NCBI RefSeq assembly: GCF_008016535.1
Contig: NZ_SAXY01000032.1
Coordinates: forward strand, 1-64,000
From: Brachyspira pilosicoli
GTDB lineage: Bacteria; Spirochaetota; Brachyspiria; Brachyspirales; Brachyspiraceae
DNA: 64,000 nt
Direction of reading: 5' to 3'
Shown one piece after another: positions 6,485 to 33,504 of this stretch (within the stretch, counting starts at the first letter, position 1; the number at the start of each line of letters is the position of its first letter). A model generated the notes under the pieces. The model saw nothing but the letters and a program-made list of their open reading frames with translations. It ran no database searches and had not been told where the DNA came from. The position numbers and the translations under genes were made by a program.

Positions 6485-8572
6485 GTGAAAGATTTACTTA
6501 TTGAAATATTGGTTGAAGAAATACCTGCAGATTTTGCCTATCCTGCAAGTGTCAGTTTCAAGAAAATTATGGAAGATACTCTAAAAAACAATGGTATAAA
6601 TTTTAACTCCATAATGGCTTATACAACTCCAAGAAGATTATCAGTTCTTGTAGAAGAAGTAGAAGAAAAGTCAAAAGACGAAATTATAGAGTCAAGAGGA
6701 CCATTATTAGATAGTGCTATAAAAGACGGCACTTTAACAAAAGCAGGAGAAGGGTTTCTAAAATCTCATAATATTGACAATATTAAAAATATAGACGAAA
6801 AAGAAGATTTTAATAAAGCATATATAAAAGAAGTAAACGGAAAAAAATATTTATTTGTAAAAAAAGAAAAAAAAGGAGTGGATACTAAAAAATTATTTGA
6901 AGAAGTTTTAGAAGATATTGTATCTAAAATAGATTTCAAAAAGAAGATGAGATGGGGAAATAAAGATTTTGCATTCGTACGCCCTATTAGAAATGTATTA
7001 GCATTATTTGGAAATGAAGTTATAAAAACTACCGTTGCTGGAATAGAGACTAATAATAAAGTAACTGGGCACAGGCTGCTCTCTCCAGAGTTTAAAGAAA
7101 TTAATAACCCTAGAGATTATGAAAAAACTTTAGCTAAAAAACATGTAATTGTTTCAAGAGAAAAGAGATTAGAAAACATAGTTGGTCAATTAGAAAAAAT
7201 AGAAAAAGAGCTTGGTTTTGAAGCTGTTTCAAAGAAAAAAGTTTCTGAAATAGTTGTTGATTTGGTAGAAGAGCCTTATTTGCTTACTGCTGAGTTTGAT
7301 TCTAAATTCTTAGAAGTGCCTAAAGAAGTTTTAACTAGTGAAATGATTGAACATCAAAAATACTTCCCATTATGTAAAAAAGACAGCTCTTTAACTAATA
7401 TATTTGTAATCACAGCTAATCAGCCTAAAACTCCTCAGATAATAGCAGGAAACATAAGAGTATTAACAGCAAGACTTTCTGACGGAAGATTCCTTTATCA
7501 AGAAGATATTAGAAAGGGAATGGACGAAATGAATGAAAGACTTGAAATGCTTATGTTTAGAAAAGAACTTGGAAGCGTTGCTGATAAAGTAAAAAGACTT
7601 GAGAGAAACTCTGAACTTTTAATAAAGCTTTTAGGTTATGAGAAAGATAAAGAAAATATACTTAAAGCTATAAAATATATGAAATCAGATTTGGTAAGTA
7701 ATATGGTTTACAACTTCCCAGAGCTTCAAGGTATAATGGGCGGATATTTTGCTAAGTCTATGAATCTTAATGATGATGTGGCTTTGGCTATTAATCAACA
7801 ATATAAACCTTTATTTGCTGCTGATGAAATACCTTCAAATGATACTGGCAAGGCTATAGCTATACTTGATAAAATGGATAATATTGTGGCTGGCTTTTAT
7901 GTTGCTGATATACCTACTGGCTCTCAAGACCCTAATGCTTTAAGAAGACAGGCTCTTGGTATTATAAACATTCTTATAAAATCTAAAAAGCATATTAATC
8001 TTAAAAAATTAATAGAGGATTCTATTAACTCTATGCCTAAATATGCTAAGGTAAACAAAAGTAATGATTTATTGAATGATATATTTGAGTTCTTTAAATC
8101 TCGTTTTGAAAATGATATTGACTTTGCAAAAGATTCTGTTGCAGGAGTTCTTTCTACTGGCATAGATGATATGTATGATGCTTACTTAAAGATAGAAGCT
8201 ATTGATGCATTTAGAAAGAAAAATGAAGAATTATTCTCTAATCTTTTATTAGTATTCAAGAGAGTTAAAAATATGATTAAATCTGCTAAAGAAGTTAATT
8301 TAGATGAATCATTATTAAAAGAAGAAGCAGAAAAATCTTTGTATAATATTTATAAAGAAAAATTAAATGAAGTTAATAAACTTATGGAAAAAAGAGAATA
8401 TGAACAAACATTTGCTTTATTAGCAAGTCTTTATGAACCATTAGATAAGTTCTTTAAAGATATTATGGTAAATGTAGATGATGAGAAAATAAAAAATAAC
8501 CGCATAGCTTTGCTTTCTTCGGTTGATAAAATTTTCAAGAATATGCTTGACTTCTCTAGTTTGGTAAAATAA
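6485..8572 (+). CDS. glyS: Glycyl-tRNA synthetase beta subunit
   Basis: 695 residues, full length for GlyS, the tRNA-binding partner of the alpha2-beta2 glycyl-tRNA synthetase. The N-terminus (KDLLIEILVEEIPADF) and the segments YTTPRRLSVLVE, MRWGNKDFAFVRPIRN and GRFLYQEDIRKG are characteristic; a C-terminal anticodon-binding domain (DALR-type) follows. The start is GTG at 6485, preceded by AAGGA. The alpha-subunit gene glyQ, often adjacent in other bacteria, is not in this window. A clear terminator follows. Confidence 0.95.
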   Translation: MKDLLIEILVEEIPADFAYPASVSFKKIMEDTLKNNGINFNSIMAYTTPRRLSVLVEEVEEKSKDEIIESRGPLLDSAIKDGTLTKAGEGFLKSHNIDNIKNIDEKEDFNKAYIKEVNGKKYLFVKKEKKGVDTKKLFEEVLEDIVSKIDFKKKMRWGNKDFAFVRPIRNVLALFGNEVIKTTVAGIETNNKVTGHRLLSPEFKEINNPRDYEKTLAKKHVIVSREKRLENIVGQLEKIEKELGFEAVSKKKVSEIVVDLVEEPYLLTAEFDSKFLEVPKEVLTSEMIEHQKYFPLCKKDSSLTNIFVITANQPKTPQIIAGNIRVLTARLSDGRFLYQEDIRKGMDEMNERLEMLMFRKELGSVADKVKRLERNSELLIKLLGYEKDKENILKAIKYMKSDLVSNMVYNFPELQGIMGGYFAKSMNLNDDVALAINQQYKPLFAADEIPSNDTGKAIAILDKMDNIVAGFYVADIPTGSQDPNALRRQALGIINILIKSKKHINLKKLIEDSINSMPKYAKVNKSNDLLNDIFEFFKSRFENDIDFAKDSVAGVLSTGIDDMYDAYLKIEAIDAFRKKNEELFSNLLLVFKRVKNMIKSAKEVNLDESLLKEEAEKSLYNIYKEKLNEVNKLMEKREYEQTFALLASLYEPLDKFFKDIMVNVDDEKIKNNRIALLSSVDKIFKNMLDFSSLVK

Positions 8573-8591
8573 TAATTATTATTGCAAAATT

Positions 8592-8622
8592 AAAGGGGCT
8601 TTATTAATAAAGTCCCTTTTTT
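8592..8622 (+). terminator. Rho-independent terminator after glyS
   Basis: An AAAGGGGCTTTAT / ATAAAGTCCCTTTT hairpin with a short AT loop runs into a T-rich tail 20 bp after the glyS stop codon. Confidence 0.85.
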
Positions 8623-8693
8623 ATATAAAAAATAATTGATTAGGATAAATTGAATTATATTTTGTCAATTTTTATTTTTTATAAATATATTGT

Positions 8694-8719
8694 CAACTTT
8701 TTCCCGCCGCAAAAAGTTG
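8694..8719. repeat. Short palindrome CAACTTTTT-N8-AAAAAGTTG
   Basis: Perfect 9-bp arms with the GC-rich loop CCCGCCGC. It is the same design as 4213-4236. It sits between the glyS terminator and the 3' end of the leftward YczE-like gene. Confidence 0.7.
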
Positions 8720-8783
8720 CAAAAAATGCAAATATTTTAACTTTATATAATATTAATATGATAGAATATAATTTTAAAATATT

Positions 8784-9445
8784 TTATGATAACAAATACT
8801 TCTCTTCTAAGGCTTTTAAAGGTTTACTAAATTGCTTGGCTAATAATCCCACAAACACAGCACTCGCAATAGTACCCTCTCTCACTCCTTCCAAATGTAC
8901 TAAAAATGATAATACTGTAACTATTGATACTGCTACTAAAAATATATCGAATGCCATTTTTGTATTGCCAAATTTGAGAGAAAATATTTTACAAATAGCT
9001 AAAACTACTCCCTCACCCGGTGTAGTAACTAATTTTGCCATTACCTCTATACTTACCACTAAACCAAGTAATATTATCCCTAATATACATATAAAGCCCA
9101 TTGCTGAATATAATTTGTATATGTTATATCTTTTATTATATAAGCAGAAAAATCAATCATGAGTCCAAATAAAACAAGCGCAGGTATTTGAAAAAGCTGA
9201 AATAAATCATACTTTTTTCTGAGCAGCAATATTTGTATTAATATAAACACAAGATTGATAATAATAGTTGTTGCTCCCACTGATAAACCTGATATTGAAC
9301 TTGCCACATACGGCACACTAGAAATTGGAGAAGTACCAAGTGCAGCTTTAATAGAAAAAGCTATACCTAAAGACATGATATAAAGTCCTATTAATAATAT
9401 TATACATCTTTCAATAAAATGATTTTTAAAAATTTCTCTCTTCAT
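8784..9445 (-). pseudogene. YczE/YitT-like integral membrane protein, frameshifted
   Basis: Two overlapping frames together make one membrane protein of about 220 residues. The first part (9080-9445) has hydrophobic helices and the segment AALGTSPISSVPYVAS, typical of YczE-like transporters. The second part (8784-9101) continues with MGFICILGIILLGLV and TPGEGVVLAICKIF. The combined length is one base short of a multiple of three, so a single-base deletion near 9085-9100 would explain the break. It starts 2 bp after the marR stop codon (TAATTATG), so it belongs to that operon. It could be a real pseudogene or a sequencing error. Confidence 0.7.
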
Positions 9446-17746: not shown

Positions 17747-19231
17747 CTATTTTATCTTACTTAAATAAAGCCCCCAAAAATCATTCAAAAAATCTAAATA
17801 CTCTTTTTTATTATCATCTTTAGTTTTATCTATCTGCTTAGATATTTTATCCTGATATTTTTTTGTTTTTTCATAAAGCTCTTTTAATCTGTTTTTATAT
17901 CTATATAATTCTTTATTATTAGAATGCTCTTCAAAATACTTATTTAAATATTTCATAGATTTATCATATTCACTTTTAATTAAATATACTTTTGCAATTT
18001 CCTTATAGTCTTTAGTTTTAGACACTTCTTTTACTAATATTTTATATAGAGAATCAATCTTCATATTCAAAATCTCTTTATTATTTCCTTTTATTTTACT
18101 AGACTCTAATATAACTTTTAAATACTGTTTTGAAGAATAATACTCTTTTATTAACTCTAAACCATTTTCTAAACTTATAGCTGGTACTTCTATTTTTGTT
18201 GATATTATTTTTAATTCATTCATTATTAAAACTATAAGCTCATAATTATTAATAGTTGTTTCATAATCAAAATTTGAAATATTTTTTCCATATTCTTTTA
18301 TTAAATCAAATTTTATATCTGTTATGTTAGCTTCTATATTTGAAGAAGTAAGTTTCTCTAATATAGATGATACTATATAATTCTCTTCAGAGTTTAATTT
18401 TTCTAATTTTTTTACAGCTCCAAGTATAGGAATAAATATTTGAGCCACATCATTATTAATATCAATTAAAGAAAATATTTTATCTATTAAATAAGGCTTT
18501 TCAATAAATTTAAGATAAAAATCTTTTAAAGATGTAGAGCCTTCTAAGTTTATATTAAAATCAAATAATATAGACTTAATCATAAAAATATTATCTTTAA
18601 ATACTAAACTATCTTTTTTATTATTTGAAGTTATGCTATGATACAAATCATTAGATAAGCATATTAATCTCTCTATATCATCCATCTCAATATATTTTAA
18701 ACCATTATATTCTAATATATTTTTAGAAGCTTTAAACTCTAATAGCTGAACCTTTTTTTCTATATTATCTATTCTGCTTGATTGCTCATCTATCTTATTT
18801 AATAAAACATTAAATGACTCTCTAACATTTTCACATACTGCTATTAACTCTTCGTCTATATCTTTTCCTATATTATTAAGTTTATTATTTAAATATATTA
18901 TTCCCTCATAAGTTATTTTATTTTGTCTTGCTAAAGTTTCTATCATTTTAATAGAAGCATTTTTTACTATAGAGTAATTATAATCAATTTCGTATCTTAT
19001 CTTTCTATTTTGTCCTGTAATTGTATTTAATATATTTTTAATAAACCCCTGATTAGCAATAAATTGTGTTCTAGATTTTGAAGCACTTAATGATGATACA
19101 GCATCCATTGTAAGTTCTGTTAGTTTAGCATAATTATTTTTATATTCTTCTACATTATTTTCTATATATTCTTCTATTATCTTTTTGTCAGATTCTTTTA
19201 TTTTATTTTCGTAGGGAATAGTTAAATTCAT
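17747..19231 (-). CDS. Uncharacterised 494-residue helical protein
   Basis: No family recognised. It is strongly charged and helical, with no signal peptide or membrane segment. A coiled coil is likely near residues 140-170 (DEQSSRIDNIEKKVQLLEF) and again at the C-terminus (about 420-480, YRYKNRLKELYEKTKKYQDK, Lys/Asp-rich). A conserved-looking N-terminal block (SLSASKSRTQFIANQGFIKN, residues about 47-66) may be a functional site. It heads the leftward run with the patatin gene. An insertion sequence sits 70 bp upstream of its start and may have replaced the original promoter region. Confidence 0.75.
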   Translation of the reverse strand: MNLTIPYENKIKESDKKIIEEYIENNVEEYKNNYAKLTELTMDAVSSLSASKSRTQFIANQGFIKNILNTITGQNRKIRYEIDYNYSIVKNASIKMIETLARQNKITYEGIIYLNNKLNNIGKDIDEELIAVCENVRESFNVLLNKIDEQSSRIDNIEKKVQLLEFKASKNILEYNGLKYIEMDDIERLICLSNDLYHSITSNNKKDSLVFKDNIFMIKSILFDFNINLEGSTSLKDFYLKFIEKPYLIDKIFSLIDINNDVAQIFIPILGAVKKLEKLNSEENYIVSSILEKLTSSNIEANITDIKFDLIKEYGKNISNFDYETTINNYELIVLIMNELKIISTKIEVPAISLENGLELIKEYYSSKQYLKVILESSKIKGNNKEILNMKIDSLYKILVKEVSKTKDYKEIAKVYLIKSEYDKSMKYLNKYFEEHSNNKELYRYKNRLKELYEKTKKYQDKISKQIDKTKDDNKKEYLDFLNDFWGLYLSKIK

Positions 19232-19301: not shown

Positions 19302-20338
19302 TGTCATGGAGCCATAGATATTGTACTTTTACTTGCTATAATATTTTTGATTCTTTCTTTGATTGTAATATAACCTAACGAAGAAATCAATCTTTGATTG
19401 TTATAAAAATGTGTATATTCTTTTAATTTTTCTCTTAATAATTCTACAGTTATATTTTTATTTAATCGTGAATAAAATTCTCTTTCGTCTATGCCGTGTA
19501 CTCTTTCTACTACGCCATTGTATCTTGGTGTTGCTATAGGAATATATCTCCTCTCTAATTTATTTTTTAAGACAATATTCATCAAAAATATTTATTTTAG
19601 GAGTATTAATACAGCGATAAGTATATTATAATCCATTGTCCGTTTGTATAGCTTGTATCTTAAAAGGTGAAGTTTTTAAGACATATTTTAAGAAAGATAA
19701 AGCACTAGAAGGTGTTTTATCTTCATAGATTTCTCTCCAACTATAACGAGTAGCTAAATCTACAGCAGTGAATTGATAAACTGTTTTTCTGCCTAATTTG
19801 ATATATTTAGTGTCTATTTGAACTATTTTGCCTTCTTTTTGTATTTTAGAGACAAATTTTCGTTTATCATATCGCTTCTTTTTCTTTTTTATTTTGTATC
19901 TCCAAAGATTATTTCTTTTTAGTACATTTTCAACGGCAGTAACACCTATCTTAATTCCTTTACGATTTAAATATGCTTTAATATAATGCTTACCTCGATA
20001 TTCTTTAGTATAGAGTTTAATAATTAAATTAATAGCTTTTTGGTTATTAAAGATATTTGGAGAAGTTTTCGGTCTAGTGCTAAAATTAGCGACAGTTCCA
20101 GTGTCTTTATATTTCTTAAGCCAAGTGTAAAAAGTGGATTTATTTATTCTTTCCATCTTTAAAAATCTTTTAATATTTTTAGTTTTTAATGCTTCATCCA
20201 CTATAAATAATTTAAATTCTGTGCTATAATCTTTTTTCATAGTAGTATCCTTTTATTTGTTTTCTATATCAAAATATTATAACAAGGATACTGCTTTTTT
20301 TATACTAAAAAATGTCCAATATCTCACACTCCTAAACA
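19302..20338 (-). mobile_element. IS481-type insertion sequence, copy 2, with 15-bp target duplication
   Basis: 1037 bp. Both ends read TGT inward, and the 29-bp ends match at 20 positions (shared GGAG and AGATATTG). The bases immediately outside both ends are the same 15-bp sequence CTATAAGATGCATAA (19287-19301 and 20339-20353), a target-site duplication. TG...CA ends, one DDE transposase gene and a long target duplication fit the IS481 family. The preserved duplication suggests a fairly recent insertion even though the transposase is broken. Confidence 0.88.
19304..20240 (-). pseudogene. IS481-type transposase, inactivated (copy 2)
   Basis: A 312-codon transposase with an N-terminal HTH (STFYTWLKKYKDTG), then a DDE domain: first Asp in VQIDTKY, second in IQTDNG, Glu in NGVVERVHG. 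Two lesions break it. The codon after TDNGL is TAA where copy 3 has GAA, and the A-tract before residue LERRYIP has six A instead of five, shifting the frame near 19570. AAGGATACT precedes the start codon. Confidence 0.9.
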
Positions 20339-24736: not shown

Positions 24737-24979
24737 TTACTCCTCCAATCTATATTTTTTTACAAGAAATAAAAATTGTTTAACTTGATAAGGTTTCACT
24801 TCTCCATTAACATTTTGTATATTAATTAATTCACTAACACCTACTTTAGAATATATTCTATGGCTTCCTCTTTGCCTTTTACATACAAAACCAAAAGACT
24901 CTACAATATTACAAAAGTAAGAGTATTTAATATTTTTATTATTGTTTGTAAGTTTAGTTATAACTTCTTTTTTATCCAT
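24737..24979 (-). CDS. hicA: HicA-type mRNA interferase toxin
   Basis: 80 residues, a double-stranded-RNA-binding-like fold. The catalytic His is in GFVCKRQRGSHRIYS (GSH at residues 38-40), where the family has G-S-H. HicA cleaves mRNA when not bound by HicB. Compared with minimal HicA proteins it has an N-terminal extension of about 15 residues. It opens the accessory island on the leftward strand. Confidence 0.82.
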   Translation of the reverse strand: MDKKEVITKLTNNNKNIKYSYFCNIVESFGFVCKRQRGSHRIYSKVGVSELINIQNVNGEVKPYQVKQFLFLVKKYRLEE

Positions 24980-25128: not shown

Positions 25129-25383
25129 ATGCCTGTTATATCAAGATTTTATGGTATCATTATTAAAATGTATTTTCAGCAGAAAGAACATAATCCTCCG
25201 CATTTTCACGCTATATATGGTGAGTATGTGGGGGTGATTGATATAAACGAATTAAAAATGATAGAAGGAGATTTACCTAATAAAGCATATTCTCTTGTAT
25301 TAGAATGGGCTAAAAATAATAAAGATGAACTTTTAAATATGTGGAAGACTCAAAACTTTAAACAATTAGAACCTTTGGAGTAA
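25129..25383 (+). CDS. DUF4160 protein
   Basis: 84 residues. The motif KEHNPPHFHAIYGEYVGVID (about 19-38) with closely spaced His residues is the DUF4160 hallmark, and the C-terminal VLEWAKNNKDELLNMW is typical. The next gene is DUF2442, 2 bp after its stop codon. The two families are frequent neighbours and have been suspected of forming a toxin-antitoxin module; the function is unproven. AAGGAC precedes the ATG. Confidence 0.85.
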   Translation: MPVISRFYGIIIKMYFQQKEHNPPHFHAIYGEYVGVIDINELKMIEGDLPNKAYSLVLEWAKNNKDELLNMWKTQNFKQLEPLE

Positions 25384-25385
25384 TT

Positions 25386-25631
25386 ATGACTTTCCATAAA
25401 ATTAAAAATGTTAAAGCTTTGGATAATCTCATTTTAGAGATAATATTTGAAAATGAAGAGATTAAATATTATGATATAAAAAAACTACTCTCTGAACATA
25501 AAGAGTTTGAAATTTTGAGAGACAGGAAATTATTCAATCTTGTAAAAGTGGATGTTGGAGGATATGGTATTTCTTGGAATAACGATTTAGATATATCCTG
25601 CAACACTTTGTATTACGACTACTCGCCGTAG
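25386..25631 (+). CDS. DUF2442 protein
   Basis: 81 residues, usual length for DUF2442: an N-terminal VKALDNLILEIIFENEEIKY strand pair, then YGISWNNDLDISCNTLY, the family's characteristic final block. The last codons (DYSP and the stop) are read from the first bases of the 88-bp repeat that begins at 25618, so the original C-terminus has probably been replaced. It is translationally coupled to the DUF4160 gene. Confidence 0.83.
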   Translation: MTFHKIKNVKALDNLILEIIFENEEIKYYDIKKLLSEHKEFEILRDRKLFNLVKVDVGGYGISWNNDLDISCNTLYYDYSP

Positions 25632-25705
25632 GGGCACTCCGCACGCCATAGCTTTAACCTATTGCGTATGTACTAGTGTGCGGTTCATTATCGCATATTA
25701 GGCAA
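25618..25705. repeat. 88-bp direct repeat R1
   Basis: It begins ACTACTCGCCGTAGGGGC and ends TCGCATATTAGGCAA. CCGCAC (from about 25639) and GTGCGG (to about 25683) form outer hairpin arms. The second copy, R2 (28330-28417), has the same length and orientation and differs mainly in the middle. A degenerate fragment (TATTCGCCATACGGAATTTC) lies near 25013-25040. Confidence 0.85.
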
Positions 25706-25747
25706 GAAATAACTAAAAAATTACTAACAGCACCAAAATAGAATCAA

Positions 25748-27715
25748 TCATTTTTTATGTATAACTTTTTTTATTACAAAATGAAAAATTACAGCACTAG
25801 ATATACTTAAAGAAGTAACTATGTGAGATACAAAAGAATTAAATTCAACAGTTAATACTTTTTTTAAAAAATAAGAAGCTATAGATATAAAAATTGCAAT
25901 AATATAACCAACAAATATTTTGAAATTATCAGATTTTCTTATATTTTCATCTTTTATTCTTTCTATTTCATCTTTTAATACTTTTATATTATCATTATAC
26001 AATTCAGTTTCTGTTTCTTTTTCTTTCTTACTTTCTTCTTTTATTCTTTCTATTTCATCTTTTAATACTTTTATATTATCATTATACAATTTAGTTTCTG
26101 TTTCTTTTTCTTTCTTACTTTCTTCTTTTATTCTGTTTATTTCATTTTCTAAATTTTTTATATTTTTTTCATATTTAATATTTTTTTCTTTTAATTCTTC
26201 TAATTCATCATTTTGTCTTTTAATTTTTTCAACTATTTCATTAGGATCCATATTTATAAGATTAGACCAATTATCCACATCGGCAGCATATGCTAGTAAG
26301 AGTTTCTTATTTTCTTCACTTATATTTTGATTATTTATTATATCATTGAATTTGACAATAAGTTCATTTGACATAATATTATTACAATATTCAAATATTA
26401 TTGTTCTAAAAATTTCTGTGTTTATATTTATATTAGATAAAACATTATCTAATATAATAATTCTAAAAAACTGTTTAATCCACATTATATTAGAGTATGT
26501 ACATTCATTTTGTTTATAAGGTAATGATATTAAGATAGCTTTTTGATATGTTAAAAATATTTCTTTTATACTTCCTAATTGACTATTTAGGTTTTTTTTA
26601 ATTTCTTCTTCATAATATTTAATTATTATATAATCATAGTTAGTTTGTTCTTCAGATGGTCTGATTTCTATTTCTCCACTATCAAATAATGTATTTTTAT
26701 ATATATCATTTCTAACACTAGATATCGTATTATATATAGCATCTTGATAATCTACTTTGATTCCTAGTTCATCATTATTAACTATTATATTATATTCTTT
26801 TAATCTTAATATTATATTTTCTTTTATTAGAGGTGTAGGAATATCATTAATATTTAAATATTTATTATTTGGATCTAAATATTTTAAATAATAATAAAAT
26901 GTACCCATAATTATATTTTTATGATTTGCTAAAGCCTTCTTATATTTTTTTATAGCTGTATATATAATTTCCAATGTTTCTTTATGAACTTTAATAATAA
27001 ATCCATCTTTTTGTAAATGTTGTAATATTAAAATTGAACTCTTATGTCTAATATTATTGCACCAACCTAAAATATTACCTACAAATATATTATCAAGATA
27101 TATAACAGGAAATTCTTTATTTTTATCTTTATTATGCGATATAGCTTTTATTATAGCTATTCCATGCATTATATGTTCTATTACATAAAAATATTTTTCT
27201 TCATTTAAAGTTCTTAATTCTTCTATTAGAATAGCTATTTCTAAATCTATATCCGTAAGACTGTTATTAGTATCATTATCATCTAATAGGTTATTAAAAA
27301 AATTATAAAAAATTTCGTTGAAATTAATTGTATTAATATTCTTTAAATTATTTTTAGTTGCAATATGCAATGAATGATCTTTTAAATTATTCCATAAGTC
27401 TTGACTTTCAATAATATATGTATTTAATTTGTAAATTTCACTATCTAAAGTTAATCTATATGCATCTTGATATTCATCATACATTATAATATTATCATTT
27501 TTAAAATATTCTAAAAAGCTATCAATTATATCTACATCAATGTTGAAATTTTGAAAAAATAACATTACTTCATTTCTTTTATGATAATTTTTATCAATTA
27601 AAATATAACTTATTAATGGTTCTAATAATAAAAAATGACTTTTTAGTTTAAGATCTTTTTTATTAAAAAAATTAGATATAACCAACATCAAAATTATTTT
27701 TTCTCTAACATCCAT
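25748..27715 (-). CDS. Large coiled-coil protein with C-terminal membrane hairpin, unknown function
   Basis: 655 residues, no family recognised. The first 470 residues are helical, soluble and free of signal peptide. From about 480 to 595 there is a Lys/Glu-rich coiled coil containing a 29-residue unit repeated twice (RIKEESKKEKETET then LYNDNIKVLKDEIE). Two hydrophobic segments follow, FKIFVGYIIAIFISIASYFL (about 605-624) and HIVTSLSISSAVIFHFVI (about 632-650), so the C-terminus should insert in the membrane with the bulk in the cytoplasm. AAAGGGAGT precedes the ATG. It lies between hicAB/DUF genes and restriction-modification and retron genes, which suggests a defence role, but this rests on neighbourhood only. 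Confidence 0.8.
   Translation of the reverse strand: MDVREKIILMLVISNFFNKKDLKLKSHFLLLEPLISYILIDKNYHKRNEVMLFFQNFNIDVDIIDSFLEYFKNDNIIMYDEYQDAYRLTLDSEIYKLNTYIIESQDLWNNLKDHSLHIATKNNLKNINTINFNEIFYNFFNNLLDDNDTNNSLTDIDLEIAILIEELRTLNEEKYFYVIEHIMHGIAIIKAISHNKDKNKEFPVIYLDNIFVGNILGWCNNIRHKSSILILQHLQKDGFIIKVHKETLEIIYTAIKKYKKALANHKNIIMGTFYYYLKYLDPNNKYLNINDIPTPLIKENIILRLKEYNIIVNNDELGIKVDYQDAIYNTISSVRNDIYKNTLFDSGEIEIRPSEEQTNYDYIIIKYYEEEIKKNLNSQLGSIKEIFLTYQKAILISLPYKQNECTYSNIMWIKQFFRIIILDNVLSNININTEIFRTIIFEYCNNIMSNELIVKFNDIINNQNISEENKKLLLAYAADVDNWSNLINMDPNEIVEKIKRQNDELEELKEKNIKYEKNIKNLENEINRIKEESKKEKETETKLYNDNIKVLKDEIERIKEESKKEKETETELYNDNIKVLKDEIERIKDENIRKSDNFKIFVGYIIAIFISIASYFLKKVLTVEFNSFVSHIVTSLSISSAVIFHFVIKKVIHKK
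25951..26134. repeat. Two tandem 87-bp units inside the coiled-coil gene
   Basis: The sequence from 25954 repeats with period exactly 87 at 26041, and the unit's first bases recur at 26128. The two units differ at about one base (a Glu/Lys codon). They encode two 29-residue coiled-coil repeats. Such identity suggests a recent duplication and allows copy-number change without frameshift. Confidence 0.88.
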
Positions 27716-27781: not shown

Positions 27782-28330
27782 TTACTCCCCTTCTATAATC
27801 CTCTTTTCCTCATCATTTAAATTATAAATAGAAAACATCAAATTATCAAGTTGTTTTTCACAAGCTAAAATCTGCCTATTTATCATATTTAAAGAGTTAG
27901 GATTTTTTTCTGTATTAACCTTTTTATTAAGCTCAATGATGTTATCAACGAGAACAACTATTTTATCATGCACCTCCTTATGACTTGAGTTACTCAAATC
28001 AATAACAGGCATAGGAATTCTTGAAGTTACAGGATTATCAAAGTGCATTGTTCTAATCGCTAAACCAAAAATAAAAATATATACATACCAAGATATTAAT
28101 TTAGAATTCAAAATTGCTAATATAAATCTTGTATCCAAATTACTAATATTTTCAAGTTGATTTACTGTGTTTAATAAAATATATTCGTCTTTATTATCTA
28201 ATATACTTGAAGGCATAGCTATAATTTTTATATGTGGTGTAGGGTTCATTATATGAGCTACTATGTTCTGTACTAAAATATAATTATTTTTTATAAGACC
28301 TTTATCATTTACAATATATTTTTTCTCCAA
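27782..28330 (-). pseudogene. C-terminal fragment of a type IIG restriction-modification enzyme
   Basis: An open frame of 182 codons that aligns with the C-terminus of the intact enzyme at 30352-33312: KIVVLVDNIIELNKKVNTEK matches LVNLVDNIIDLNKKLSYEK, and NLNDEEKRIIEGE matches GLSEEEIGIIEGN. It covers the end of the target-recognition (TaqI-C-like) domain only. The methyltransferase and nuclease parts are missing; the frame stops at the edge of repeat R2 (TAG, then TTG at 28330). It is the tail of a second, different enzyme, removed by an event at the repeat. Confidence 0.85.
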
Positions 28331-28461: not shown

Positions 28462-30114
28462 TTATTTATTTTTATAATCTATATTTATTTCGTTAATAAT
28501 ATCAAATATCTTTTTAAAATTAATAAATTCAGATTCTGCTAATTTTCTAACAATATGAATAGCAAATTTATTTTTACTTAAACCTTTTTCACCTATTTTA
28601 TAAAATATTTTTTTATCTTTATTTTGTATATCTAACTCTAATTTATGACCTTTAAAAGGAGTATTTAAAACTTCATCAGAAAAATAATACTCTATTGATA
28701 TATATTTTTTATCTGGTAATTCTGGTATTGGAAAATAATATACATTTGGTTCTAAAAATAGATATTGTGCATTTTTTTGTTCAAAGTCATTAACAAATTT
28801 TTTATTATCTCTATCAAAAATAATTATAATAGGATTTTTAGGTTTAACTAATTTTGACCTTTTCAAAAACATATTAATTCTATCTAAGAATTTTGTTTCT
28901 TTAAACCTTGATAATAATTGATTTAATGAACCTTCACCAGAATTTTTTTGAGAATTAGTTCTTGAGAATGGATTTTTAGTTATTATTTTTAATTTAAACT
29001 TATATTCTGATTTAAAATATTTAAATGCTGATTTTATGTATATTTTATCTGTTATTCCTTCAACTAAAATAGTAATATTATTGTTATTAATAAAGTTGTC
29101 AAAACAAAAAAAATTTTCTAACATTTTCAATGATAAATCTCTATTATTTTCTATATTAATCTTTCTAATTTGATGAATAAATGCTATTCTACCTTCAACA
29201 ATTTTTCTTCTTGAAATATAGTCATCTGAGCTAGGATATAATACTAAATGGTCTAGCATTGCTCTAGTTGCTCTTATATACGAACGTTTTATGTTTACTT
29301 TTTTATTAGTAATTAATCCTGTAACCTCTTGTCTAGATGTTTTATATTGCATCCTGATTTTTTCAAAATTTATATCAAAATGATTATTATTAATTACTTC
29401 TATAATTTTATTACCTAAAAACCATTTTTCTTCATATTCATCAAAATAAGCTATTCCTTTTGGAAATTCTCTTAAATTCGTAGATATAGTAATATCATCA
29501 GCATATCTTGTATAAGTAAATCTATATTTTTTTGACAATGAAAATAAATACTTATCTAAACTTAATGCAAGCAAATTTGATATTATCGGAGAACATGGGC
29601 TACCTTGTGGCAATTGATTATTATGACATGCTATTTGTGCTATTAATGTTGCTATATCTTCATTTAACTGAAAATATTTATTTTTTATAAAAAATCCTCT
29701 TACTCTTCCAAAATTTATACTAGGAAAAAAATCTTTTAAATCTATATTCAAAACATATCTTTTATTTTTATGATATTGAGAATTAGTTATAATTGATTTT
29801 TTTCTTATAAATCCATGAGCTAATCTTTTATTAAAATTATTATGCGTAATAGCTATATAACACATATCAAGATTTTTTTTTAAATTGTGTTGGATTCTCT
29901 TTAAATGTTCATTTGGAGCAGATATGTTTCTCATACTGCCATTTTTTTTAGGAATTGTAAATTCGTTATACAATGGTTCTTTATTTATGAGTAAAATATA
30001 ATATATAGTTTTTAATCTGATATCCAACCAATCAGAAAAATCTTTTTTTGATTTACAATTTACTAATTCTTCTAATTTTTTTACAGCTCTTTCAATTTCT
30101 TCTTTTTTATACAT
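28462..30114 (-). CDS. Retron reverse transcriptase with C-terminal TOPRIM domain
   Basis: 550 residues from the ATG at 30114. A longer frame to 30168 would run into the a2 arm of the retron RNA, so I do not use it. The RT domain spans about 1-320: NSQYH at 111-115 (retron motif X, usually NAxxH), catalytic IDLKDFF (124-130), LPQGSPCSP (168-176), YADD (204-207) and the retron-specific VTG (264-266). A TOPRIM domain follows: LVEGITD (Glu352) and IIIFDRDNK (Asp434, Asp436). The RT would make msDNA from the RNA at 30134-30274, and the TOPRIM part is the presumed effector nuclease. Retron Ec67 (Eco2) has the same fusion as I recall. Confidence 0.93.
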   Translation of the reverse strand: MYKKEEIERAVKKLEELVNCKSKKDFSDWLDIRLKTIYYILLINKEPLYNEFTIPKKNGSMRNISAPNEHLKRIQHNLKKNLDMCYIAITHNNFNKRLAHGFIRKKSIITNSQYHKNKRYVLNIDLKDFFPSINFGRVRGFFIKNKYFQLNEDIATLIAQIACHNNQLPQGSPCSPIISNLLALSLDKYLFSLSKKYRFTYTRYADDITISTNLREFPKGIAYFDEYEEKWFLGNKIIEVINNNHFDINFEKIRMQYKTSRQEVTGLITNKKVNIKRSYIRATRAMLDHLVLYPSSDDYISRRKIVEGRIAFIHQIRKINIENNRDLSLKMLENFFCFDNFINNNNITILVEGITDKIYIKSAFKYFKSEYKFKLKIITKNPFSRTNSQKNSGEGSLNQLLSRFKETKFLDRINMFLKRSKLVKPKNPIIIIFDRDNKKFVNDFEQKNAQYLFLEPNVYYFPIPELPDKKYISIEYYFSDEVLNTPFKGHKLELDIQNKDKKIFYKIGEKGLSKNKFAIHIVRKLAESEFINFKKIFDIINEINIDYKNK

Positions 30115-30133
30115 ATTTTCAAATATTAAAAAC

Positions 30134-30274
30134 AAGCTTACAGATACTCTTAAGTAAAACCGCACCAAGCTTGGTGCAAAAAAATAAACAGATATATAGC
30201 TATATACTGAAAAACTCTTGCTATAATAAATCTTCTCATGCGAAATGCAACATGAAATATCTATCTGTAAGCTT
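30134..30274 (-). ncRNA. Retron msr-msd RNA
   Basis: A 13-bp perfect inverted repeat, TATCTGTAAGCTT (30262-30274) and AAGCTTACAGATA (30134-30146), has the layout of retron a1 and a2. Reading 5' to 3' on the minus strand: a1; a hairpin with stem TTTCATG/CATGAGA; AGCAAGAG; a hairpin CAGTATATAG/CTATATATCTG; a perfect palindrome GCACCAAGCTTGGTGC (30162-30177); a2. It ends 20 bp before the RT start codon, the standard order msr-msd-RT. The boundary between msr and msd and the branching G were not assigned. Confidence 0.85.
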
Positions 30275-30351: not shown

Positions 30352-33312
30352 TTAATTACCTTCTATAATTCCTATTTCCTCCTCACTAAGCCCATACAAA
30401 GAATAAACAATTTTATCAATAGCAGCATCAACAGCTTGTATTCGAGTATTAAGCATTTCTATAGTGTTAGGGTTCTTTTCGTAGGATAATTTTTTGTTTA
30501 AATCGATGATATTGTCAACAAGATTAACTAATTTATTTTCAGTATCCTTATCAGGCTCTGGAATTGGAAACGGTTCTATAGCATCCTTTCTATATTGAAA
30601 ACCTGCACTACCTAATTGTATATTAGAATAAAAATTATAAAAAATATAAAAACCTGCTTTTGAAGATAATACAGACATAATATATTTTAAATGTTCGCCT
30701 GTCATAATAAAATTTGTTTTGTCAGGAATAAAATTTTCTTCATCATAATAAAAATTAGCTGATGTCGTGGTTTCTGGATAAATTAATTTCGGCTTGTCAA
30801 AATCTAATAAATAAGCACAATTTCTTAAATTATAAGGAGTATCTCCTTTATCTTGTCTTTTTTCTAATTGTTTATAATATTTATCCAAATGTTTTTTTAT
30901 AGCTGGATAATCCTTTACGTCTATAGGTGATATATCTTTATTTTTTACTCCATTATGAATATTAATTAAATATAAATTATGGAAATTACAAATATATCTT
31001 TTTATATCTCTACCTCTAACTAATTTTCTAATAATTTCTGAACTTTTTTCATCTTCATTTATAAGATTATTTTTTGTTTCTTCATCAATAATAAATGCTT
31101 CATTAAATCCTGTTTTTATACCATAATTAATTTGCACACCCCAATCTTTTAAAGGTTTATGTTTAATTATTTTTTCAAAAATACTATTTTCAACATTATT
31201 CATTATTACCCATTCTTTATCATGATTGGCTATAACTATATCATTTTTAAATTCTAAATCTTTAAGATTTACTAAATCATCATAAAATTTTAAAGCCTTA
31301 AACTCTCTTGGTTCATTAATTTTTATTTCACCGTCATTTTTTGAATATAATATTATGCTCGTATCAACTGTAGCTCCTTTAAATCTTCCTGCTCCCAAAT
31401 CTACAACACCATTAACATTTGCATTCCTATAAAAATAATCTCTTGTAATTGCACCATATCCCGCACGCATCCACTTATTAGAAGTTATCATTCCAACAAT
31501 TCCGCCAATTTTTAATACATCTAAACTTTTTTCAAAAAATAACTGATAAATGTCGCCTGTTAAAACATAATTTTTATAATTAGCTTCTTTGTAACCTTCT
31601 TTAAGTTCTTTTTCCATACCTTGAATTTGAACATACGGAGGATTGCCAATAACAACATCAAATCCGCCTGATTTCATTATGTCCCTAAATTTTAAATTCC
31701 AATCAAAGCAGTTAATTTTATATAAAGTGTCATCGTCCAAATCTAAATGACTTTCATAAAAATCATTGCCTATCAAACTGTTTCCGCACTTGATGTTGTC
31801 ATCCAATGACGGTAAAGCCCGCTCATTAAATAAATCCTGATTGTTCTGTATTGACGCTGGGCTCTCACCCTCCAAACATTTCATTAGCAGCGATAATTTC
31901 GTTACCTCTGCCGCATTGCTGTCTATATCTACACCAAATATGTTGTTGCGTAATATCTGCTTCTTTATCCAAATTGTTAAATCCCCATTCTCCTTTATTA
32001 CATCTTCTTTCACCCCCTTAAACTTCGCCCTGTCCTTTATCTTGTTGTAATATTCTATATGATAATTAAGTAAATATTTATACGCCCCAAGTAAAAAACT
32101 TCCGCTTCCGCAAGCGGGGTCTAATATCTTTATATTGGCTATCTCCTCTGGCTTTTTGCCCTTTATAGCTTCTCCAACCGTATTTTTTACTATATAATCA
32201 ACTATATACTCAGGCGTATAATAAACCCCTCCTGCCTTACGCACCTCTGGTTTTAATTCTATCTTCGCACTGTGATTTTTGCCGATTGTGATAGTTTTGC
32301 CCAAAAACTGCTCATAAGCATTCCCTATTATCTCAACCGATATCACAGAAAACTCATAAGGACTCAAAGGATAATAAAGCTCATTAATAATCTCTTTTAT
32401 CACCTTATTATCAATCACAATACTGCTGCTAATACTGTCTTTAGAGAAATCAAACAGCCCTGAATTATACCTACCGTCTGCATGTTCAAAAACTCTTAAA
32501 AGGTTGCTGTAAAAATTGTCATTTTTGTTTTGGCAAGTTTTTTTCAAATCACCATACTCCTCAATGCCTCTGTCTTCCGCCGCCCTCAAAAATATAATCC
32601 TGTCAATAATCTGCTGAACTGCATAATTTAAATCGCGTACAGATAAATCTTTGTTTAATTTAGATATATTAGAAGCGAGTTTAGTACGAAGATTGTCAAG
32701 GGTGCTTAAGAAATCAATATCAACGCTTTCAGTACCTTTTTTGTTAGAAGTCCCTGCTATATACTTTTCAAGCGAACCCTGTTCAATTCTATCTTTATTG
32801 AGTATCTCATAGAGAAAATCAAACCTTTTTAAATAATCCTCAAAATGAATATACTCAATTCTTGCAGTAGAGGCCTTATCATTAACATTAGGTTTTCTAG
32901 TGCAGTCATAAACGGCAAGCTCTTCAAAATCTGTGAGAAAACTAATCCCGAGCTTTGCACTCCAGCCGTATCTTCTAAGCTGAAAAGCAGGCAAACTGTC
33001 ATCTTTGAGATTAACACCGGGCTTTTTCGCCTCCACAAAGAAAACCCTACTCCCCCCAATACGAAATGCATAATCAGGAGCTTTAGTTTCTTTACCAACT
33101 TTAACTTTATCCTCATGAATTACATCTCTGTAGGTCTGCGATTTCCCTGCCTTGTTAGACACATCCCAGCCAAACGCCTCAAAGAACGGATCCAAAAAAT
33201 CCCTTCTAGTCTCCGTTTCATTATAATTTTTGTTAGTATATTGTTCTCTGTTATTTCTAAACTTAATAACAAGCTCTTCAACTTTTTTATAAACTTCATC
33301 TTTGCTATACAT
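30352..33312 (-). CDS. Type IIG restriction-modification enzyme (Eco57I-like)
   Basis: 986 residues from the ATG at 33312, chosen because GGGAG lies upstream (a TTG 15 bp earlier is the alternative). One chain contains an N-terminal PD-(D/E)xK nuclease (Asp80, then VEAKK with Glu94 and Lys96), an N6-adenine methyltransferase with LDPACGSGSF (SAM site, about 400) and catalytic NPPYVQ (about 560), and a C-terminal target-recognition domain of the TaqI-C type. It cuts and methylates DNA from one polypeptide. It sits immediately upstream of the retron RNA. Its N-terminal half is visibly richer in GC than the surrounding genes, a sign of transfer. Confidence 0.92.
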   Translation of the reverse strand: MYSKDEVYKKVEELVIKFRNNREQYTNKNYNETETRRDFLDPFFEAFGWDVSNKAGKSQTYRDVIHEDKVKVGKETKAPDYAFRIGGSRVFFVEAKKPGVNLKDDSLPAFQLRRYGWSAKLGISFLTDFEELAVYDCTRKPNVNDKASTARIEYIHFEDYLKRFDFLYEILNKDRIEQGSLEKYIAGTSNKKGTESVDIDFLSTLDNLRTKLASNISKLNKDLSVRDLNYAVQQIIDRIIFLRAAEDRGIEEYGDLKKTCQNKNDNFYSNLLRVFEHADGRYNSGLFDFSKDSISSSIVIDNKVIKEIINELYYPLSPYEFSVISVEIIGNAYEQFLGKTITIGKNHSAKIELKPEVRKAGGVYYTPEYIVDYIVKNTVGEAIKGKKPEEIANIKILDPACGSGSFLLGAYKYLLNYHIEYYNKIKDRAKFKGVKEDVIKENGDLTIWIKKQILRNNIFGVDIDSNAAEVTKLSLLMKCLEGESPASIQNNQDLFNERALPSLDDNIKCGNSLIGNDFYESHLDLDDDTLYKINCFDWNLKFRDIMKSGGFDVVIGNPPYVQIQGMEKELKEGYKEANYKNYVLTGDIYQLFFEKSLDVLKIGGIVGMITSNKWMRAGYGAITRDYFYRNANVNGVVDLGAGRFKGATVDTSIILYSKNDGEIKINEPREFKALKFYDDLVNLKDLEFKNDIVIANHDKEWVIMNNVENSIFEKIIKHKPLKDWGVQINYGIKTGFNEAFIIDEETKNNLINEDEKSSEIIRKLVRGRDIKRYICNFHNLYLINIHNGVKNKDISPIDVKDYPAIKKHLDKYYKQLEKRQDKGDTPYNLRNCAYLLDFDKPKLIYPETTTSANFYYDEENFIPDKTNFIMTGEHLKYIMSVLSSKAGFYIFYNFYSNIQLGSAGFQYRKDAIEPFPIPEPDKDTENKLVNLVDNIIDLNKKLSYEKNPNTIEMLNTRIQAVDAAIDKIVYSLYGLSEEEIGIIEGN

Positions 33313-33504
33313 AAAACAATCTCCCAATTAGTTATATAAGAAAACATTAATCAAAAAAACATTGATTATAAAAAACAATTTTGTTATTTTTACATAGTAT
33401 AAGTAATTTTTTTTAATTATTCAATGAAATATAGAATTTTTTATTTATCATTTTTCAGAAAAAAGACTATACTACTAATAACTATATTATAAAACTACAA
33501 CAAA

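What the first reader, a model, noticed from the sequence alone, without database searches (positions are those of the whole stretch)
25748..27715. Unknown coiled-coil/membrane protein inside the defence island
A 655-residue protein without recognised family sits between toxin-antitoxin genes, a broken restriction enzyme and a retron. It has a large soluble helical sensor-like part, a tandemly duplicated 29-residue coiled-coil unit and a C-terminal two-helix membrane hairpin with the bulk facing the cytoplasm. This is the architecture seen in membrane-acting abortive-infection effectors. It is the strongest candidate in the window for an undescribed defence gene.
Basis: partly seen in the sequence, partly recalled or inferred. 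Interest (0 to 1): 0.72.

Follow-up and report, generated by a model that had tools for sequence, protein, structure and literature searches.

The report
Cargo gene of switchable defence locus
The unknown gene is a rare, Brachyspira-only protein (probably a nuclease-like domain tied to the membrane) that sits, next to a retron, as interchangeable cargo behind a restriction enzyme whose DNA-recognition parts are swapped between species, so it is most likely an anti-phage gene in a reshuffling defence locus.

Summary
The 655-aa ORF is real, on the minus strand, with a 28/29-identical duplicated coiled-coil unit and a C-terminal two-helix membrane hairpin. No Pfam, NCBIfam, PADLOC or PDB sequence match places it in a family. 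Homologues: 6 copies in 5 of 26 Brachyspira genomes, none elsewhere in the collections searched. The 'sensor' part looks instead like a winged helix plus a PIN-nuclease-like domain (VapC match, Z 5.8; acids D208, E249, D361 kept, fourth replaced); sequence profiles do not confirm PIN, so this is inferred. The bigger result is the setting. The 'broken restriction enzyme' is a truncated extra target-recognition (TRD) cassette. Genus-wide, a type IIG enzyme gene is followed by extra TRD cassettes, each followed by cargo genes, with a shared repeat. TRDs that are extra in one species are in the full-length gene of another. Homology between relatives stops at the enzyme's stop codon (-10 to +33 nt, ten comparisons) and unrelated cargo follows: Gabija, retrons, AIPR, RES toxins, many unknowns. 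The gene is cargo in two species. Best reading: a membrane-tethered nuclease-type defence effector carried by a TRD-swapping type IIG locus. Defence and nuclease activity are untested.

The parts
25748..27715 (-). the unknown gene (P0001), 655 aa, cargo gene
   Evidence: homologues; SD AGGGAG upstream
27446..27652 (-). residues 22-90, winged-helix-like N-terminal region (inferred)
   Evidence: Z up to 8.4 to winged helices (cullin C-terminus, YodB, LmrR), but model pLDDT about 33-62 here
26480..27118 (-). residues 200-412, PIN-nuclease-like domain; D208, E249, D361, T389, Q391 (inferred)
   Evidence: sequence-profile tests negative
25952..26125 (-). residues 531-588, tandem 29-aa coiled-coil unit
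25772..25921 (-). residues 599-648, two-helix membrane hairpin
   Evidence: conserved in homologues
27782..28330 (-). truncated extra TRD cassette (C-terminal specificity part of a type IIG enzyme), 66 nt before the gene
   Evidence: 66% to an extra TRD in another genome
28319..28434 (-). array repeat, upstream copy
25607..25722 (-). array repeat, downstream copy; the two copies bracket the TRD fragment plus the gene
28462..30168 (-). retron reverse transcriptase-Toprim fusion (type I-C, Ec67-like), cargo directly behind the enzyme
   Evidence: (E 1.6e-148)
30134..30274 (-). putative retron msr/msd RNA with a1/a2 end stem
   Evidence: z -3.1, 0 of 200 shuffles; no Rfam match
30352..33327 (-). 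full-length type IIG restriction-modification enzyme heading the array
   Evidence: mosaic with other species
25129..25631 (+). DUF4160 + DUF2442 pair marking the distal end of the array in many species
24737..24979 (-). HicA-like gene, also found next to arrays in other genomes

Best explanation
The gene is interchangeable cargo of a Brachyspira type IIG restriction-modification locus. The locus holds one full-length enzyme gene followed by extra 3' cassettes that encode alternative TRDs; cargo genes begin right behind the TRD stop codons, with a shared repeat between modules. Recombination has swapped TRDs between extra and full-length positions and exchanged the cargo (shown by sequence comparison between species; how often, and by which enzyme, is unknown). 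The product is most likely a membrane-tethered toxin-type effector: winged-helix-like N-terminus, PIN-nuclease-like domain, variable coiled-coil spacer, and a hairpin that holds it at the inner membrane with its bulk in the cytoplasm. It would cut RNA or DNA on infection, blocking the phage or stopping the cell (inferred).
For: Array and exchange: extra TRDs match the TRDs of full-length enzymes in other species (84-92%); the window's own enzyme is a mosaic, body 88% to G018's full-length gene and TRD 86% to G018's extra cassette; homology between loci ends at the enzyme stop codon (-10..+33 nt) in ten comparisons and cargo differs. All 29 exact copies of the 26-nt repeat core in 26 genomes lie at such loci. 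Cargo includes Gabija GajA/GajB, retrons, AIPR, RES, KAP, IrrE peptidases, PADLOC candidate families. The gene holds this cargo position in two species. PIN reading: best full-domain matches of two models are VapC/PIN (Z 4.3-5.8); Foldseek lists PIN protein AF1683 and a phage 'PIN like domain' near the top; conserved D208, E/D249, D361 and invariant T389.
Against: Models are weak (pLDDT 52 and 68, 5-sequence alignments). Z is under 8 for PIN and no Foldseek E is below 0.09. Sequence-profile comparison with PIN and PIN_8 is at chance and Pfam finds no PIN in any homologue. The fourth PIN acid is Q or H. Two of six homologues lie outside defence or mobile surroundings and two copies look damaged (L002 N-terminal frameshift; L003 truncated). 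No experiment. Genomes are one per species, so switching within a strain was not seen.
Confidence: 0.5

Rival explanations
1. Membrane-acting abortive-infection effector: the soluble part senses infection and the hairpin damages the membrane.
For: Hairpin conserved in all intact homologues; coiled-coil length varies freely as in a spacer; defence setting.
Against: Conservation is concentrated in residues 205-430 (D208, H244, T247, QTxYD361, T389), which looks like an active site; the hairpin sequence itself is poorly conserved beyond hydrophobicity.
Confidence: 0.22
2. Non-defence membrane-linked regulatory or housekeeping protein that happened to be carried with a defence array.
For: Two homologues next to ordinary or glycan genes; some arrays carry cargo with no defence match.
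Against: Patchy presence (5 of 26 genomes), low identity (28-42%), damaged copies, and location in cargo slots filled by defence genes elsewhere are typical of accessory defence genes.
Confidence: 0.18
3. The array is only a passive remnant: repeated insertions and decay next to an old restriction gene, with no exchange or switching now. (This concerns the locus and can be true together with any reading of the gene.)
For: Several TRD cassettes, including the one before this gene, are truncated or split; no recombinase gene was noticed in the arrays.
Against: Near-identical TRDs in extra and full-length positions, within one genome (94%, G018) and between species; 98%-identical loci that differ in cargo (G008/G005).
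Confidence: 0.3

Closest known systems
VapC / PIN-domain ribonucleases
   Same: Predicted fold of residues 200-412 and three acidic positions.
   Different: Not found by sequence; fourth acid is Q/H; about 110 residues between second and third acid; winged helix, coiled coil and membrane hairpin added; no small antitoxin gene next to it.
Pneumococcal tvr locus (SpnIV type I RM; PMC6265443)
   Same: Restriction locus with spare specificity segments and direct repeats; specificity changes by recombination.
   Different: Here a single-chain type IIG enzyme, no recombinase noticed, and defence cargo genes begin at the enzyme's stop codon and are exchanged too.
TRD movement in type I and type IIG specificity genes of Helicobacter pylori (PMC3077401)
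   Same: TRD exchange by recombination at flanking repeats, type IIG included.
   Different: There a separate S subunit, and no cargo in the passages read; here the TRD is the enzyme's own C-terminus and extra copies lie downstream with cargo.
Phase-variable type IIG enzyme of Campylobacter jejuni (PMC4889913, abstract seen in search only)
   Same: Type IIG enzyme with switching expression; several Brachyspira copies carry 5- or 7-nt repeats at or near the 5' end.
   Different: The window's copy has no such repeat; TRD and cargo exchange are additional.
Variable 24-kb region with a 'type IIS' RM enzyme in B. hyodysenteriae (PMC4476648)
   Same: Possibly the same kind of locus, already noticed as strain-variable.
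   Different: The passages read list gene types only; TRD cassettes and cargo exchange are not mentioned there.

Membership tests
PIN / VapC ribonuclease | PIN fold (beta-alpha Rossmann-like core) | tested here: inconclusive
   Consistent VapC/PIN matches at Z 4.3-5.8 on low- to medium-confidence models; Foldseek PIN hits without significant E
PIN / VapC ribonuclease | Sequence-profile match | tested here: not met
   No Pfam PIN hit in any of 6 members to E 10; hhalign within shuffled controls
PIN / VapC ribonuclease | Three to four catalytic acids | tested here: inconclusive
   D208, E/D249, D361 kept; fourth is Q391 or H
VapBC toxin-antitoxin | Antitoxin gene next to the toxin | tested here: not met
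   66 nt upstream lies a TRD fragment, downstream a repeat; no small co-directional ORF of 60 aa or more next to it
PIN_8 (PF18476) | Score above curated cut-off | tested here: not met
   Not among Pfam hits; no Brachyspira genome matched at E 1e-5; hhalign at chance
Membrane-acting Abi effector | Conserved transmembrane segment(s) | tested here: met
   Hairpin in all intact homologues by hydropathy
Membrane-acting Abi effector | Phage-triggered membrane damage and growth arrest | not testable with these tools
   needs bench work
Type IIG restriction-modification (the locus) | Endonuclease, methyltransferase and TRD in one chain | tested here: met
   30352-33327: HSDR_N, Eco57I/N6_Mtase, TaqI_C; PADLOC REase_MTase_IIG E 1.7e-191
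tvr-like switching RM locus | Extra TRD segments homologous to the TRD of full-length genes | tested here: met
tvr-like switching RM locus | Dedicated recombinase in the locus | tested here: inconclusive
   None noticed among ORFs and shown families, but only 25 of 39 Pfam families were listed
tvr-like switching RM locus | Rearrangement within a clonal population | not testable with these tools
   one genome per species held

The most novel reading that the evidence does not exclude
Brachyspira use the type IIG gene as a recombination platform: TRD cassettes and defence cargo behind the enzyme's stop codon are exchanged as modules between repeats, so one locus can change both its DNA specificity and the accompanying anti-phage gene; the gene studied is a new membrane-tethered PIN-like effector carried by it.
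Probability: 0.33. Interest if true: 0.78.

Novelty: new variant of a known kind. Interest (0 to 1): 0.62.

Why it matters
If right, it identifies a genus-wide defence hotspot in spirochaetes where restriction specificity and defence cargo are exchanged at a fixed point, the enzyme's stop codon. That gives a simple way to list many undescribed defence genes: read what follows each TRD stop codon. It also offers a testable candidate for a membrane-tethered nuclease effector, for which no described relative was found here.

Tried and rejected
Family searches in Pfam, NCBIfam, PADLOC, PHROGs and PDB sequences gave only coiled-coil or chance matches for the gene. Phages, plasmids and viral contigs gave no relative; one spirochaete outside the genus matched only the coiled coil and hairpin region. 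Integron attC sites: the repeat has CCGCAC...GTGCGG arms but not the attC R-box order, and no Rfam match. VapBC and PIN_8 membership rejected by sequence. TRD and cargo as a fixed pair rejected: near-identical TRDs are followed by different cargo. Prophage context of one homologue (L023) not supported by PHROGs. Tyrosyl-tRNA-synthetase and AAA-lid fold matches judged partial or generic.

Full report
WHAT IS THERE. The ORF at 25748-27715 is real and on the minus strand: 655 aa, ATG start, a good ribosome-binding site. The window is contig C40 of a 2.76-Mb genome. Its close relatives in the named collection are Brachyspira, so I take the host to be Brachyspira. The duplicated 29-residue unit (residues 531-588, 28 of 29 identical) and the C-terminal pair of hydrophobic segments (599-617, 630-648) are as described.

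HOMOLOGUES. Six copies are found in 5 of 26 genomes of the genus. None was found in the rest of about 390 spirochaete genomes (one match to the coiled coil and hairpin region only), in the one-genome-per-species collection apart from Brachyspira (a single pattern), or in phages, plasmids and viral contigs. Identity is 28-42%. The copy in G010 has a frameshift near its start and the B. catarrhinii copy ends at 497 aa. Invariant residues lie mostly between 205 and 430 (D208, N209, H244, T247, Q357, T358, Y360, D361, T389). The coiled coil varies from about 20 to over 100 residues. The hairpin is present in every intact copy.

FOLD. A model of the whole protein is poor (pLDDT 52), and one of residues 193-428 is medium (pLDDT 68, pTM 0.67, core about 75-90). 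In both, structural rows that cover the whole domain are nearly all PIN domains: VapC of Rickettsia, Shigella and Mycobacterium, PAE0151, AF1683 (Z 4.3-5.8, about 110-130 residues aligned). Against viral models the top hit is a phage 'PIN like domain' protein (prob 0.80, E 0.09). The conserved acids D208, E/D249 and D361 and the invariant T389 come in the order expected of PIN acids; the fourth acid is replaced by Q or H. But profile comparison with 23 PIN and 5 PIN_8 sequences was no better than shuffled controls, and Pfam finds no PIN in any member. So 'PIN-like' is an inference from predicted topology and motif order, about 50-60% likely. Residues 22-90 resemble a winged helix, on a low-confidence part of the model.

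THE SETTING. The fragment just upstream (27782-28330) is the C-terminal specificity part of a type IIG enzyme. In G010 the homologue lies in a long array: a full-length type IIG gene, then four further 3' pieces that begin near the methyltransferase motif GFDVVIGNPPY and end in the enzyme's conserved tail, each followed by unrelated genes. Fetching the locus from the other genomes shows extra TRD pieces in about ten of 26 species, and ileS nearby in about nine. The 26-nt core of a repeat found on both sides of the window module occurs without mismatch 29 times in the 26 genomes, every time at such a locus: 28 near an enzyme hit, the last next to the conserved distal flank on a separate contig. 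Looser variants are scattered elsewhere.

EXCHANGE. TRDs that are extra copies in one species match the TRD of the full-length enzyme in another: window/G018 84%, G004/G016 89%, G025/G011 92%, G004/G014 92%, G010/G015 87%. G018 holds two copies 94% alike. The window's own enzyme is a mosaic: its body is 88% identical to G018's full-length gene, and its last 1.4 kb 86% identical to G018's extra cassette. Near-identical loci carry different cargo: G008 and G005 are 98% identical up to the enzyme's stop codon and unrelated after it until the repeat zone. Ten comparisons end between -10 and +33 nt of the stop codon. Because coding sequence is always better conserved than spacer, the diverged pairs alone would be weak evidence; the 93-98% pairs are the strong ones. 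TRD and cargo are therefore exchanged, but not as a fixed pair. Seven other genomes carry AGCAC (7-14 copies) or AGTCAAC-type repeats (5-7 copies) at or near the enzyme's 5' end, suggesting on/off switching there; the window's copy has none.

CARGO. Among 57 cargo proteins: Gabija GajA and GajB, a type VI-like retron RT and another RT, AIPR, RES domain (6 by Pfam), KAP NTPases, IrrE-type peptidases, Mrr, PIN, PADLOC candidates PDC-S42, PDC-S49, PDC-M11A and RmrA, and many without any match. The window itself carries a type I-C retron directly behind the enzyme with a folded RNA bearing the a1/a2 end stem. No control set of random genes was scanned, so the enrichment is not given as a number. 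The gene studied thus sits where defence genes sit.

OTHER HOMOLOGUE SETTINGS. One lies between a DNA methylase-Mrr fusion and an integrase, one between a protease and a glycosyltransferase gene (no phage match), one between a hydrolase and a metal-transporter gene, one truncated copy near glycan genes. Three of six are therefore in clear defence or mobile surroundings.

JUDGEMENT. Shown: the ORF, its repeat and hairpin, its narrow distribution, its position in a type IIG TRD/cargo array, and the exchange footprints between species. Inferred: defence function, PIN-type catalysis, anchoring at the inner membrane, ongoing switching. Literature in the held library describes TRD switching in type I loci (PMC6265443, PMC7394358), TRD movement in type IIG S subunits (PMC3077401), and a strain-variable 24-kb region with a type IIS enzyme in B. 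hyodysenteriae (PMC4476648). A few searches found no description of TRD cassettes with exchanged defence cargo; that is not proof of absence.

Noticed in passing
window 28462-30274 (-): Apparently intact type I-C (Ec67-like RT-Toprim) retron with a folded RNA upstream (z -3.1) in a spirochaete.
   Followed up: partly
L007, L041, L051, L058 (AGCAC x7-14); L048, L056, L057 (AGTCAAC-type x5-7): 5- and 7-nt tandem repeats at or near the 5' end of the type IIG gene; copy changes would shift the frame, so on/off switching is likely.
   Followed up: partly
L041:6436-9274: A Gabija GajA/GajB pair sits directly behind the type IIG stop codon.
   Followed up: partly
L038:8007-8828, L043:3849-5156 and 8339-9160, L047:208-1020: A recurring cargo family with a hydrophobic segment and no match in Pfam or PADLOC (one member scanned): another candidate defence gene.
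   Followed up: no
L007:12058-12432: Four to five tandem 70-nt copies of the array repeat; the repeat looks modular, with interchangeable middle parts (GTACATTGTAC versus TATAGTTGAC).
   Followed up: no
window 24737-24979 (-): HicA-like gene without a recognised HicB partner; close copies stand beside the array in G008, G017 and G025.
   Followed up: no
window 19304-20240 (-): Transposase-like gene split into two ORFs, beside a 494-aa protein (17747-19231) without a Pfam family.
   Followed up: no
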